Positions 21,854 to 26,217 of a stretch of DNA of 64,000 nt are shown here, piece after piece. This DNA comes from Tritonibacter scottomollicae. Its GTDB lineage: Bacteria; Pseudomonadota; Alphaproteobacteria; Rhodobacterales; Rhodobacteraceae. A program made the translations under genes and the position numbers. The stretch spans positions 124,001 to 188,000 of the forward strand of contig NZ_PVUF01000005.1 of NCBI RefSeq assembly GCF_003003215.1, written 5' to 3'. The notes beneath the pieces were generated by a model that saw nothing but the letters and a program-made list of their open reading frames with translations, was not told the DNA's origin and searched no databases. Each line of letters starts with the position of its first letter. Within the stretch, counting starts at the first letter, position 1.

Positions 21854-22416
21854 CGAGATCTCCCGGCGCGACCTGCGCCGGGGCTGCGAACCGCATCCGA
21901 AGGCACACCACCTTGGGCGATGCGTAGGGGAGTGGGAGGCCCGTTTGGGCGTCACATCCCCGACGAAACAGGAAGCGGCGTTCCAAGCGCCCTTTCGCAT
22001 GGATCAAAGGCACCCGACCCGGGCCTTTGACACCTGTCTGGAGTGGGTGCGCTCACTCCATACGCCGAGAAGGACCAGGCAAGAAAAAAACACCGGGCGG
22101 TCAACGAAACGAGCCTGATCGGCGAACCTGACCTCCTCTGTTTCAGAGGGGGTCTTTTTGTGTGTTGTCATGTGCTTACAGGGGGAGATGAATGCCGCGC
22201 TGGGTGCTGTTGTCTGGACTGGTGTCCGGGGGAGAGAGGCTCAGAGCGCAGCAAGTGGTCTGAGCGTTAAATTGTTCTCGCCAACGCGTAACTTGAACGA
22301 AGTGTTAAGCATAATGGACGACTGTGCTGATGGGGGGACGCGGTCGTCTTCTGCATCCCACTCGCATTGACAACACTCCCGCAAAACGCCGGCGCTGCCA
22401 GATGAAAGGCACTCCC
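21854..22416. other. 563-bp gap downstream of nrdJ, possible transcribed RNA
   Basis: No gene is recognised. The segment has an 8-bp perfect hairpin without T run at 21862-21882, a conspicuous GAGTGG...CCACTC-like dyad region near 22039-22062 and a strong terminator at 22130-22159. The terminator lies about 275 nt past the nrdJ stop, so either nrdJ has a long structured 3' UTR or a separate small RNA ends here. Confidence 0.5.
22130..22159 (+). terminator. Strong Rho-independent terminator
   Basis: A 10-bp stem (22130-22139 with 22145-22154, one G-U) with a 5-nt loop is followed by TTTTT. It probably ends the nrdJ transcript or a small RNA between 21.9 and 22.1 kb. Confidence 0.88.
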
Positions 22417-22968
22417 ATGATGTCCCTCCCGCTCTTGATCTCGCCGCTCTGCTCGATCCGGTCTGGGCTGGCGTTTGGGTTCGGCGTCGGATCGCTTGTT
22501 CTGTCCGTCAGCGCGCTTTGGGCCGGAGAGGTGGAGCATGATTGGTCAGGTCGTTTTCTCGGCGCGATCGCCGTACCGCCACAGATGGCGCTGCAGCCAC
22601 CAACGGCCCTTATGAAGATCCGCGATATGCCGTCCACAGCTGCCGAGCCGCGCGCTTTCCCGCAGCATCAGGCAAGCGGCACGCCGGGCGGTGGCTCGAA
22701 TCTGTGGCAGGGCGGCGCACGGCGTTCGCCAGCTGCGGAGAGACAGGTCCACACCACGCCGCCCTTCCGCAGCGGATTGCAAATTGTTCAGCCGAGGATC
22801 GGAGCTGCCGGACTGGCGCCGGGTGCGCTGGGGCTTGGGTGGGGTGTGGAAGTGTCATCGCAGGTCTACCTGCGGGGCAGCGTGTTTGGACGTGAGGATG
22901 GCGAGGGCGGCTATTCGCTGTCACCGGAGAACCGGCAGCTCGCCCTCACAGCGTCGTTCCGTTTTTGA
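22417..22968 (+). CDS. Hypothetical exported protein, possible outer-membrane link
   Basis: I do not recognise the family. The 183-residue frame has a hydrophobic N-terminal segment (GLAFGFGVGSLVLSVSALWAG) that looks like a signal peptide, a Pro/Gln/Gly-rich middle, and a C terminus QLALTASFRF ending in Phe, as outer-membrane beta-strands do. ATG 22417 has AAAGG seven nt upstream; an in-frame ATG at 22402 and a GTG at 22324 are alternatives. The length and the clean C terminus support a real gene, but no homologue is known to me. Confidence 0.6.
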   Translation: MMSLPLLISPLCSIRSGLAFGFGVGSLVLSVSALWAGEVEHDWSGRFLGAIAVPPQMALQPPTALMKIRDMPSTAAEPRAFPQHQASGTPGGGSNLWQGGARRSPAAERQVHTTPPFRSGLQIVQPRIGAAGLAPGALGLGWGVEVSSQVYLRGSVFGREDGEGGYSLSPENRQLALTASFRF

Positions 22969-23045
22969 CCCGCGCGCCGGTAACGCATCTCCTTGCTTCG
23001 CAGAAATGCTTGGCGGATCGCACTGGCTGTGCTACGCCCACAGTC

Positions 23046-23090
23046 ATGGCACGATTTGAAACCCTGATTATCATCTGTATTGCCTGCTGA
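23046..23090 (+). CDS. Putative 14-residue leader peptide for cysS-cimA
   Basis: A 14-codon frame (MARFETLIIICIAC, stop TGA) ends 128 nt before cysS. It holds four Ile and two Cys codons in its last seven positions, matching the genes downstream: cysS charges tRNA-Cys and cimA begins an isoleucine pathway. Its last codons and stop lie in one arm of a hairpin (23083-23089 with 23095-23101). No Shine-Dalgarno sequence precedes it; a weak TTGGCG/GCTACG promoter at 23010-23036 would place the transcript start next to the ATG, so it could be leaderless. Reading it as an attenuation leader is inference. Confidence 0.5.
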   Translation: MARFETLIIICIAC

Positions 23091-23160
23091 TTTTCAGCGG
23101 GCTGGTTTCTGTCGTTCCCTTCCATATGACAAGTTGCTAAGCCCGCGCTGCGCGCAGCGC
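23083..23160 (+). promoter_or_regulatory. Putative attenuator structures upstream of cysS
   Basis: Four segments can pair in mutually exclusive ways: 1 (23083-23089) with 2 (23095-23101); 2 (23095-23103) with 3 (23140-23150, with a 2-nt bulge); 3 (23145-23150) with 4 (23155-23160). This is the 1:2, 2:3, 3:4 plan of ribosome-controlled attenuators. The 3:4 stem has no T run, so an intrinsic terminator is not evident; Rho or translation effects would be needed. Confidence 0.4.
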
Positions 23161-23218
23161 TGTGGGGGAGCCGTATCCCGCCGTGCTGCTGGGCCGACTT
23201 GTTGTCGAAGGAGCTGAC

Positions 23219-24592
23219 ATGACGACGATCAAACTGCACAACACCAAGAGCCGGTCGAAAGAGGCCTTTGCGCCGATCGATCCCCAGAACGTGCGGATGT
23301 ATGTCTGCGGCCCGACCGTCTATGACCGGGCCCATCTCGGCAATGCGCGGCCCGTGGTTGTGTTCGACGTGCTGTTCCGGCTGCTGCGCCATGTCTACGG
23401 CGCGGATCACGTGACCTATGCGCGCAACTTCACCGACGTGGATGACAAGATCAACGCCCGCGCCGCCGAAAGTGGCCGCGAGATCGGTGAGATCACCGCC
23501 GAGACCACCCAGTGGTTCCTCGACGACATGGGCGCGCTTGGCGCGTTGGAGCCGACGCATATGCCGCGTGCGACGCAGTATATCCCGCAGATGGTTGCGA
23601 TGATTGCGGATCTGATCGACCGCGGCCATGCCTATGCTGCCGAAGGCCATGTCCTGTTTGCGGTGGACTCCTGGCGCGAGGGGTATGGTCAGCTTTCGGG
23701 CCGGTCGGTCGATGACATGATCGCGGGGGCGCGGGTGGAAGTGGCGCCTTACAAGAAAAACCCGATGGATTTTGTGCTGTGGAAACCCTCGGATGCGGAA
23801 CAGCCGGGGTGGGAGAGCCCCTGGGGACGGGGGCGTCCGGGCTGGCATATCGAATGCTCGGCGATGAGCCATGATCTCTTGGGCGAGAGTTTCGACATTC
23901 ACGGTGGCGGCAATGATCTGATGTTCCCGCATCATGAGAACGAGATCGCCCAAAGCTGCTGCGCCAACCCCAAGGGGGAGTTCGCGCGCTACTGGCTGCA
24001 CAACGAGATGCTGCAGGTCGAGGGCAAGAAGATGTCCAAGTCCCTGGGCAATTTCTTTACCGTGCGTGATTTGCTGGACAAGGGTGTGCCGGGTGAGGTC
24101 GTGCGGTTTGTGTTCCTGCAGACCCATTATCGCAAGCCGATGGACTGGACCGAGAAGAAGGCCGCGGTGGCCGAGGCGACGTTGCGCAAGTGGCGGGCAC
24201 TGACGGCGGGCATCGAGCCCACCGCCAGCGCTGCTGCCGCGGTCGTTGACGCGCTGGCGGATGATCTCAATACCGCTGGCGCCATTGCAGAGATGCACAA
24301 GCTGGCAGCTGCGGGCGATGCCGCCGGTTTGCTGGCGGCGGGACAGTTGCTGGGGCTTTTGAGCGAAGACATGGGCGCATGGGCCAAAGGGCCTGTTGTC
24401 GATCTCTCTGCGCATGAGGCACAGCTGTTTGCGGCACGCCAAGCGGCGATGGAAACCAAGGACTTTGCCGAGGTGGATCGCCTCAAGGCCGCCTATACCG
24501 AGGCGGGGCTGGAAGTGCGCATGTCAAAAACCGGTGTGGAACTTGTGCCCGGCACAGGGTTTGACGCGGCCAAGCTGGAGGGGCTGGAATGA
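23219..24592 (+). CDS. cysS: Cysteinyl-tRNA synthetase
   Basis: CysS attaches cysteine to its tRNA. The 457-residue class I synthetase shows [18 protein letters not shown] (zinc Cys30 and the HIGH-type motif at about 39-42), [43 protein letters not shown] and [15 protein letters not shown] 23219 follows the good ribosome site GAAGGAG; a GTG at 23162 is open in frame but unlikely. The stop overlaps cimA in ATGA. A putative Ile/Cys leader peptide lies upstream. Confidence 0.97.
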
Positions 24593-26217
24593 CGGAACGG
24601 CTCTACCTTTATGACACCACTCTGCGCGACGGGCAGCAGACGCAGGGGGTGCAATTCTCCACGTTAGAAAAAAAGCAGATCGCCCAGGCGCTTGACGACC
24701 TAGGTGTGGACTACATCGAGGGCGGCTGGCCCGGTGCCAACCCGACCGACAGTGCCTTTTTCGATGAGGCACCCGAGACCCGCGCGACGCTTACGGCCTT
24801 TGGCATGACCAAGCGGGCAGGGCGCTCGGCAGAGAATGACGATGTGCTGGCGGCGGTGATGAACGCGGGCACCAAGAGCGTCTGTCTGGTGGGCAAGTCG
24901 CATGACTATCATGTGACTGCTGCGCTGGGGATCACGCTTGAAGAGAACCTCGACAATATCGCCCAGTCGGTGGCGCATATCGCGGCGCAGGGACGTGAGG
25001 CGCTGTTTGATGCCGAGCATTTCTTTGACGGCTATAAGGCCAATCCAGACTATGCGCTGGCGGCCTGTCGTGCGGCGCTGGAGGCGGGCGCGCGCTGGGT
25101 TGTTCTGTGCGACACCAATGGCGGGACGCTGCCGCATGAGGTCCACCGCATCGTATCCGAGGTGATCGCTGCGGGGCTGCCGGGCGACCATTTGGGCATT
25201 CACACCCATAACGACACAGAAAACGCGGTTGGCTGTTCGCTGGCGGCGGTGGATGCGGGCGTGCGCCAGATCCAAGGCACGCTCAACGGTCTGGGCGAGC
25301 GCTGCGGCAATGCCAATCTCACCACCCTGATCCCGACTTTGTTGCTGAAAGAGCCATACGCCAGCACCTATGAGACCGGAGTGCCGCAGGGCGCGCTGGC
25401 GCGGCTGACGACGGTAAGCCGGATGCTGGACGAGATCCTCAACCGGGTGCCGCAGAAACAGGCGGCCTATGTGGGGGCCTCGGCCTTTGCACATAAAGCG
25501 GGTCTGCATGCGAGTGCGATCCTCAAGGATCCCTCGACATATGAACATATTGAGCCTGCGGTGGTCGGCAACAGCCGCATCATCCCGATGTCCAATCAGG
25601 CCGGGCAATCGAACCTGCGCCGCCGTCTGGCTGAGGCCGGTATCGAGGTCGAAAAGGGCGATCCCGCGCTGGGGCGCATTCTGGAGCGCGTGAAGGAGCG
25701 TGAAACCGAAGGTTATTCCTACGACACCGCGCAGGCCTCGTTCGAGCTGCTGGCACGGGATGAGCTGGGCCAGATGCCGCAGTTCTTTGAGGTCAAGCGC
25801 TACAAGGTCACCGTGGAGCGGCGCAAAAACAAATACGACCGCATGGTCAGCCTGTCGGAGGCCGTCGTGGTGGTCAAGGTCGACGGAGAAAAGCTGCTCT
25901 CCGTCAGCGAATCCCTCGACGAGACCGGCAGCGACCGTGGCCCGGTGAACGCGCTGGCCAAGGCGCTGCGCAAGGATTTGGGGCGCTATTCCAAGGTGTT
26001 GGACGACATGCGGCTGGTCGACTTCAAGGTGCGGATCACCCAGGGCGGCACCGAGGCTGTGACCCGCGTCATCATCGACAGCGAAGACGGCAAAGGGCGG
26101 CGCTGGTCGACGGTTGGCGTCAGCCCGAACATATTGGATGCGTCTTTCGATGCGCTGCTGGATGCGATGAACTGGAAGCTTCTGCGCGATGCGGCCGAGG
26201 TGGTGGATGCAGTTTGA
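24589..26217 (+). CDS. cimA: (R)-citramalate synthase
   Basis: CimA condenses pyruvate with acetyl-CoA to citramalate, a threonine-independent route to 2-ketobutyrate and isoleucine. The 542-residue protein has the DRE-TIM barrel ([74 protein letters not shown]) and a C-terminal LeuA-type allosteric dimer domain. The length and the FFDGYK segment favour citramalate synthase over 2-isopropylmalate synthase. It is coupled to cysS by ATGA and overlaps the next gene by 11 nt. Confidence 0.92.

What the first reader, a model, noticed from the sequence alone, without database searches (positions are those of the whole stretch)
23040..23222. Candidate Ile/Cys-rich leader peptide and attenuator controlling cysS-cimA
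A 14-codon frame (MARFETLIIICIAC) ends just upstream of cysteinyl-tRNA synthetase and citramalate synthase. Its last seven residues hold three Ile in a row, another Ile and two Cys, the two amino acids linked to the genes downstream. Its end forms one arm of a hairpin, and four segments can pair 1:2, 2:3 and 3:4 in exclusive ways, as in classical attenuators. No Shine-Dalgarno precedes it, so it might be leaderless. I know of no described attenuator that senses both Ile and Cys. Against it: the 3:4 stem lacks a T run.
Basis: partly seen in the sequence, partly recalled or inferred. Interest (0 to 1): 0.75.

Follow-up and report, generated by a model that had tools for sequence, protein, structure and literature searches.

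The report
Isoleucine–cysteine sensing leader before cysS-cimA
A tiny gene of 14 codons in front of the genes for cysteine tRNA charging and isoleucine synthesis is conserved across a family of bacteria and looks like one switch that turns the pair on when either amino acid runs short; its cysteine half was already published, its isoleucine half seems new.

Summary
The frame MARFETLIIICIAC (23046-23090) is real and belongs to a family-wide leader: at least 89 of 96 distinct cysS loci carry such a uORF. Codons -5 to -3 before the stop are Ile or Cys in 92-94% of 126 leaders counted as cimA-linked, and Ile and Cys swap at the same positions. A promoter-like -10 ends 5-8 nt before the uORF ATG in 129 of 130 leaders and no SD is seen, so the uORF is probably leaderless.

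The motif is published as uORFC-8-2, a Cys attenuator before cysS (Brewer 2021), whose text names neither isoleucine nor cimA. Apparently new: Ile as second sensed amino acid matching cimA; four leaders in genomes without detectable cimA keep Cys but one Ile (about two lineages); in one genus segment 3 pairs with a G run at the cysS SD in 31 of 37 leaders, so output there is probably translational; a promoter-like block overlapping segment 3 persists in 9 of 13 loci without a uORF. Regulation was not tested.

The parts
23010..23015 (+). P1 promoter -35 (TTGGCG)
   Evidence: best promoter match before the window's uORF, spacer 17. The consensus scan does not list it
23033..23038 (+). P1 promoter -10 (TACGCC, a poor match to TATAAT), ends 7 nt before the uORF ATG
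   Evidence: -10 ends 5-8 nt before ATG in 129 of 130 leaders
23046..23090 (+). probably leaderless uORF MARFETLIIICIAC with stop TGA
23082..23102 (+). hairpin 1:2 (GCCTGCTGA / TCAGCGGGC), last codons and stop in the 5' arm
   Evidence: -15.5 kcal/mol, z -5.6; the one terminator-like site found (0.5, sd 0.8, in shuffles)
23097..23102 (+). segment 2, GCGGGC, shared by 1:2 and 2:3
23097..23146 (+). hairpin 2:3 (GCGGGC with GCCCGC 23141-23146)
   Evidence: -22.2 kcal/mol, z -3.9; 91.8% of cells paired, 3 of 7 pairs with both-side changes
23115..23143 (+). P2, promoter-like block: TTCCCT, 17 nt, (TGC)TAAGCC; overlaps segment 3
   Evidence: pattern in 72 of 85 leader loci and 9 of 13 loci without a uORF, shuffle rate 0.002-0.005; in the 64 kb once on + and twice on -
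23208..23213 (+). cysS Shine-Dalgarno AAGGAG
   Evidence: by eye
23219..24592 (+). cysS, cysteinyl-tRNA synthetase
   Evidence: TIGR00435, 423.7 bits, cut-off 340
24589..26217 (+). cimA, citramalate synthase (isoleucine synthesis)
   Evidence: TIGR00977, 612 bits, cut-off 450

Best explanation
It is a ribosome-mediated attenuator in front of the cysS-cimA operon that acts as an OR gate for two amino acids. P1 transcripts begin at or within a few nt of the uORF ATG, and ribosomes start there without an SD. If charged tRNA-Cys or tRNA-Ile is short, the ribosome waits at codons -6 to -3, covers segment 1 (the last two codons and the stop), leaves segment 2 free, and 2:3 forms: cysS-cimA is on. 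If both are plentiful, the ribosome finishes and leaves, 1:2 forms and 2:3 cannot: the operon is off. How off is read out probably differs by clade. In the unnamed genus g7 the freed segment 3 pairs with the cysS SD, so translation is blocked. In the window's clade it may be the 1:2 hairpin with its U-rich tail acting as a weak terminator; this is open. Shown by sequence: uORF, Ile/Cys constraint, promoter-like spacing, competing stems, gene order. Inferred: stalling, the switch, both outputs, response to Ile.
For: At least 89 of 96 distinct cysS loci carry the uORF. Ile+Cys at codons -5, -4, -3 is 92, 94, 92% of 126 leaders; every one of the 126 has at least one Ile and one Cys. ATT and ATC both occur at most Ile positions, and Ile and Cys (2-3 base changes apart) replace each other at -8 to -4. 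In 124 of 124 genomes where both positions were printed (lists capped at 150 each, of 166 genomes with a leader and 184 with cimA) the leader lies 1.38-1.96 kb before cimA on the same strand. Leaders in genomes without detectable cimA (G178, G194, L087, L071) keep 2-3 Cys and have one Ile each, against one Ile in 3 of 126 linked leaders, or 4 of 130 with the four leaders recognised late. 1:2 and 2:3 fold better than all 200 shuffles in the window. Pairs at -1, +1 and +2 beside the 2:3 core and the pair beside UGA:UCA in 1:2 exceed all 2000 permutations. In g7, 37 of 37 leaders pair segment-3 C's with downstream G's, and in 31 these G's lie 5-10 nt before the cysS ATG.
Against: No expression, ribosome or RNA-end data. 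Only about two lineages show Ile loss without cimA, and one of them (L071) is a 2.6 Mb MAG of unknown completeness. Permutations ignore relatedness; the +3 pair is at chance (16 of 124 against a mean of 17.4), the +2 pair is canonical in only 48 of 124, and UCA stands close before segment 2 in only 68 of 117 leaders. Slid by +2 the 2:3 stem has a higher covariation score than in register (0.095 against 0.064). On the g7 tree the leader needs 2 changes and cimA 5, so their joint absence is not independent evidence. An equilibrium folding model gives only a weak effect of stalling on SD access: 82 of 130 leaders rise, median +0.014. Mean z of the g7 SD hairpin is only -1.2. The consensus scan finds neither P1 nor P2. 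The Ile at -3 is ATT in 112 of 116, so a base-level constraint adds to or partly replaces an amino-acid one there. The window itself has no tandem Cys codons.
Confidence: 0.72

Rival explanations
1. Cys-only attenuator with intrinsic terminator, as published: the 1:2 hairpin with its U-rich tail ends transcription; only Cys codons matter and Ile codons are there for another reason (slow or spacer codons).
For: Published model for uORFC-8-2 (passages). One search finds the 1:2 hairpin with tail TGGTTTCTGT as the one terminator-like site in the window region. T after segment 2 is 5.75 of 10 in the window's genus.
Against: One site against 0.5 (sd 0.8) in shuffles. T after segment 2 is 3.2 of 10 in g7 and 4.3 in the other leaders. 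Ile is about as conserved as Cys and drops to one where cimA is absent. Part of the T stretch belongs to the P2 block.
Confidence: 0.2
2. P1 transcripts are only a minor route: the conserved promoter-like block P2 at segment 3 drives cysS, and the leader with its hairpins mainly tunes or insulates P2.
For: P2 pattern in 9 of 13 loci without a uORF, shuffle rate about 0.002; T at -23/-22 in 62 and 63 of 63, low conservation at -16 to -8, TG before the -10.
Against: Does not explain Ile/Cys codons, the start at P1 or 2:3 pairing. P2 pattern absent in 37 g7 leader loci, 22 g7 loci without leader and 5 g37 loci. Positions -7 to -5 (AAG) are also conserved, which a plain spacer does not ask for. 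A P2 transcript would start after segment 3, so the two can coexist.
Confidence: 0.08

Closest known systems
uORFC-8-2 motif (Brewer et al. 2021, PMC8632094; passages read)
   Same: Upstream of cysS in Rhodobacterales, AUG uORF with Cys codons near its end, two stems, proposed ribosome-mediated attenuation. Almost surely the same element.
   Different: They name only tandem Cys codons and an intrinsic terminator; a search of the main text finds no occurrence of isoleucine, citramalate, cimA or leaderless. Here: Ile codons, cimA link, probable leaderless start, SD pairing in g7, P2 block.
Leaderless polycysteine uORFs of mycobacteria (Canestrari et al. 2020; paper not held; known from citing passages and from recall)
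   Same: Leaderless short ORF with Cys codons; ribosome speed controls translation of the downstream gene.
   Different: Cys only, other phylum, cys metabolic operons; no sequence relation shown.
thrL and ilvGMEDA type attenuators (recalled)
   Same: One leader with codons for more than one amino acid, each relevant to the operon.
   Different: Those amino acids belong to one pathway; Cys-tRNA charging and Ile synthesis do not. Classical U-run terminators.

Membership tests
uORFC-8-2 motif | Lies upstream of cysS in Rhodobacterales | tested here: met
   class-wide sample: 4 of 289 genomes match, all four in the window's family (family of 265 unmatched genomes not listed)
uORFC-8-2 motif | Two tandem Cys codons near the uORF end | tested here: inconclusive
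   Common in relatives (CC at -5/-4), but the window has C at -4 and -1, not in tandem
uORFC-8-2 motif | Match to their covariance model | not testable with these tools
Classical transcription attenuator | Leader peptide with regulatory codons for the operon's amino acids | tested here: met
Classical transcription attenuator | Mutually exclusive stems | tested here: met
   1:2 and 2:3 share segment 2, beat shuffles and covary in part
Classical transcription attenuator | Terminator hairpin with U run | tested here: inconclusive
   3:4 at chance and no T run; 1:2 terminator-like once against 0.5 expected
Leaderless uORF translational attenuator | uORF starts at the mRNA 5' end | tested here: inconclusive
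   Promoter spacing fits, start codons partly chosen by hand; no 5' end data
Leaderless uORF translational attenuator | Downstream SD sequestered in the alternative fold | tested here: inconclusive
   g7: 31 of 37 pair a G run 5-10 nt before the ATG; window: not seen as a 3:4 hairpin
Any of these | Induction by shortage of the amino acid | not testable with these tools
   needs experiment

The most novel reading that the evidence does not exclude
A single leaderless uORF acts as an OR gate for two unrelated amino acids, Ile and Cys, because its operon joins an aminoacyl-tRNA synthetase for one with an early enzyme of synthesis of the other; the Ile codons fade when cimA is lost. Across the family the output device has shifted: an SD-masking hairpin in one genus, a terminator and/or a bypass promoter laid over the same segment in others.
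Probability: 0.5. Interest if true: 0.72.

Novelty: new variant of a known kind. Interest (0 to 1): 0.58.

Why it matters
It would show that attenuator codons follow operon content, so that gene neighbours of different pathways share one ribosome-based sensor, and it offers a natural series (cimA kept or lost, SD hairpin or not, P2 or not) for testing how attenuators change output device. It also marks a directly testable small ORF in well over a hundred genomes.

Tried and rejected
Rfam over the window and over the region at E<=10: no family other than three tRNAs. Plasmid collection, distant mode: no match. Further R1 matches in G054, G107, G154, G178 and G209: six were read; they look like coding sequence or gene ends, and none has an Ile/Cys uORF of this kind (L125 has a 9-residue frame MVSIRCISS), so chance. 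Leader/cimA co-loss in g7 as independent evidence: rejected, few events; in that tree G224b, a second cysS of a genome that has cimA elsewhere, was labelled cimA-negative. R1 as proof of absence: rejected, it missed real leaders in g37, G143, G023, G259, G294, G178 and G194. Equilibrium SD-access model: weak, kept as evidence against; its SD positions were picked by a simple match and some are wrong. RNAalifold on the ungapped 2:3 groups returned only the 6-pair core, almost invariant.

Rows dropped: L020 and L025 (copies of L010 and L009). Eleven loci set aside as without uORF; the re-check shows that four of these do hold one (L015 MDNRRPNTFVCRISR, L030 MMTIETHIICCC, L094 MTTMTAQIGPICR, L096 MTRAITPIPFPCIGR), which are not in the 126/130 counts and were removed from the no-uORF set (so P2 went from 12 of 17 to 9 of 13); seven remain without (L036, L048, L060, L062, L081, L092, L093). 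For alignment A1 eight more of the 85 (L019, L041, L046, L053, L065, L071, L083, L087). Six of 130 leaders did not fit the seg2/seg3 pattern.

Full report
The frame. NCBIfam names the two proteins cysteine--tRNA ligase and citramalate synthase, both above the curated cut-off.

Conservation. One protein-based scan gave 80 cysS loci from named genomes (the best 80 of 581) and a genus search gave 18. Of 98 loci two are copies. Of the 96 left, 85 were recognised as holding an ATG-to-stop frame of 8-20 codons rich in Ile and Cys some 115-195 nt before cysS; a re-check of the other 11 found four more, less typical, so at least 89 of 96. Typical peptides are MNPMTCIIICCITC, MTRIATIICCIIR and, in the window, MARFETLIIICIAC. 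A model of the leader (R1, 77 leaders) matched 166 of 196 genomes of the order (77 of 87 genera, all one family) and 4 of 289 genomes of a class-wide sample, those four in the family (265 unmatched genomes are not listed, so I cannot say that no family member was among them). R1 misses divergent leaders: five g37 genomes and G143, all with cimA, have such uORFs by eye.

Which residues. Over 126 leaders counted as cimA-linked (three of them, L019, L076 and L077, at contig ends where cimA could not be seen) Ile+Cys make 72, 60, 92, 94 and 92% of codons -7 to -3, and 24% at -2. All 126 have at least one Ile and one Cys. In the first 85 leaders the two other frames have under 2% of either. Ile codons vary between ATT and ATC except at -3, where 112 of 116 are ATT, against 6 ATT and 28 ATC in cysS-cimA of the window. 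Ile and Cys replace each other at -8 to -4. This position fits a ribosome that, waiting there, covers the last codons and stop but not segment 2 (inference from usual footprint sizes, recalled).

Leaderless start. Best promoter matches before the uORF score 6.00 on average against 4.36 in shuffles; 92 of 130 exceed the 95th percentile of shuffles; the -10 ends 5-8 nt before the ATG in 129 of 130. SD likeness is at shuffle level for the uORF (3.10 against 3.15) and 4.17 for cysS. Twenty start codons were chosen by hand with this in view. The window's own -10, TACGCC, is poor, and the strict consensus scan lists neither P1 nor P2 but one site inside the uORF.

Structure. In the window 1:2 and 2:3 beat all 200 shuffles, 3:4 does not. 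Across 77 aligned leaders the 2:3 stem is paired in 91.8% of cells, with both-side changes in 3 of 7 pairs; sliding the partner by up to 3 drops pairing to 28-52%, although slid by +2 the covariation score (0.095) is higher than in register (0.064). In 124 of 130 leaders that fit the pattern, the pairs at -1, +1 and +2 of the invariant core exceed all 2000 permutations (71, 100 and 48 canonical), the pair at +3 does not (16). In 1:2 the pair next to stop UGA:UCA is canonical in 43 of 69 (permutation maximum 39); a UCA close before segment 2 is present in 68 of 117. Permutations ignore kinship.

Link to cimA. Where leader and cimA positions were both printed, 124 of 124 genomes have them in cis. 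Twelve of 196 genomes lack cimA at E<=1e-120; one of them (G206) also lacks cysS, its contig ending shortly after the leader; none of the other 11 has an R1 match, though two of these (G178, G194) carry a short leader MDWICCLCRA seen by eye. L087 (MEWICCPC; its genome gives the same place as G322) and L071 (MTETATLRCICRLR) also lie in genomes whose best match to CimA is a 30-34% identical relative, probably leuA-type. These four leaders have one Ile and two or three Cys; only 3 of 126 linked leaders have so few Ile, 4 of 130 with the late four. They are about two lineages, so this is suggestive. In L062 cimA lies elsewhere, with no cysS in the 2.3 kb before it, and its cysS has no leader. In genus g7, 64 of 121 genomes have cimA and 57 an R1 match, all within the 64; direct reading adds leaders in three of the other seven (G023, G259, G294), while G255, G303 and G312 have cysS-cimA but no leader, and G280, without a cysS match and with cimA at a contig end, cannot be judged. 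On a cysS tree of 65 g7 rows the leader needs 2 changes and cimA 5, and the pair test cannot reach significance.

Output. In g7 the uORF stop lies roughly 50-80 nt from cysS and segment 3 is closely followed by G-rich sequence. In 37 of 37 folds segment-3 C's pair with downstream G's (example GGUCCCGCAAGGGGGACUUCAUG). In 31 the paired G's end 5-10 nt before the cysS ATG, the place of the SD; in six (G219, G236, G242, G252, G268, G320) they lie further upstream (two of these six, G236 and G268, were scored 0 there because of a chance AUG). Mean z is -1.2, so single hairpins are not remarkable, their placement is. T in the 10 nt after segment 2 is 3.2 there, 5.75 in the window's genus, 4.3 in other leaders. 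The scan calls the window's 1:2 terminator-like (one found, 0.5 expected). So translational output is likely in g7 and the output is open in the window.

P2. Upstream of TAAGCC at segment 3, two T's are near invariant (62 and 63 of 63 loci) at the place of a -35 with a 17-nt spacer, positions -16 to -8 are hardly conserved, TGN precedes the -10, and AAG at -7 to -5 is conserved as well. The pattern occurs in 72 of 85 leader loci, 2 of 2 g79, and 0 of 64 g7 and g37 loci (37, 22 and 5); mononucleotide shuffle rates are 0-0.005. Of loci without uORF it occurs in 12 of 17 as first classed and in 9 of 13 after removing four that do hold a uORF. It looks like a leader-independent promoter of cysS. 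So the T stretch and TTGCTAAG cannot be taken as evidence of RNA structure; the CCGC-type sequence that pairs with segment 2 comes after it and is present in 71 of 72 leader loci with P2 against 4 of 9 without uORF.

Literature. Brewer et al. 2021 describe uORFC-8-2, 145 examples only before cysS of Rhodobacterales, with tandem Cys codons and a proposed terminator (passages); isoleucine, citramalate, cimA and leaderless are not in its main text. Among the rows listed (one search lists 20 of 178) no other paper is on this leader. Mycobacterial leaderless polycysteine uORFs are the nearest tested mechanism (citing passages only). Cys leaders without terminators were predicted in actinobacteria in 2005 (passages).

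Verdict. A real, widely conserved dual Ile/Cys leader; a published motif with an apparently unpublished second amino acid, gene link and probable second output. Regulation by Ile is the claim to test.

Noticed in passing
window 23115-23143: Promoter-like block TTCCCT-17-(TGC)TAAGCC overlapping segment 3; kept in 9 of 13 cysS loci that have no uORF.
   Followed up: partly
window 23058-23063 with 23104-23109: uORF codons GAA ACC can pair with GGTTTC just after hairpin 1:2 (fold), which may explain the ET residues seen in many leaders of the window's genus.
   Followed up: no
codon -3 of the uORF (window 23079-23081): Ile at -3 is ATT in 112 of 116 leaders although cysS-cimA of the window prefer ATC; a base-level constraint or a slow codon.
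   Followed up: no
G256, G266, G275, G278, G308, G311: Second, diverged cysS copies 52-56% identical to the query in six g7 genomes.
   Followed up: no
L100-L102, L104, L106, L184-L202: In the g7 genomes without cimA that were read, cysS seems to follow another coding sequence directly (by eye, not annotated) and has no leader; G255, G303 and G312 look the same with cimA still present.
   Followed up: partly
window 22324-22968: 214-aa frame upstream of the leader without any NCBIfam match.
   Followed up: no
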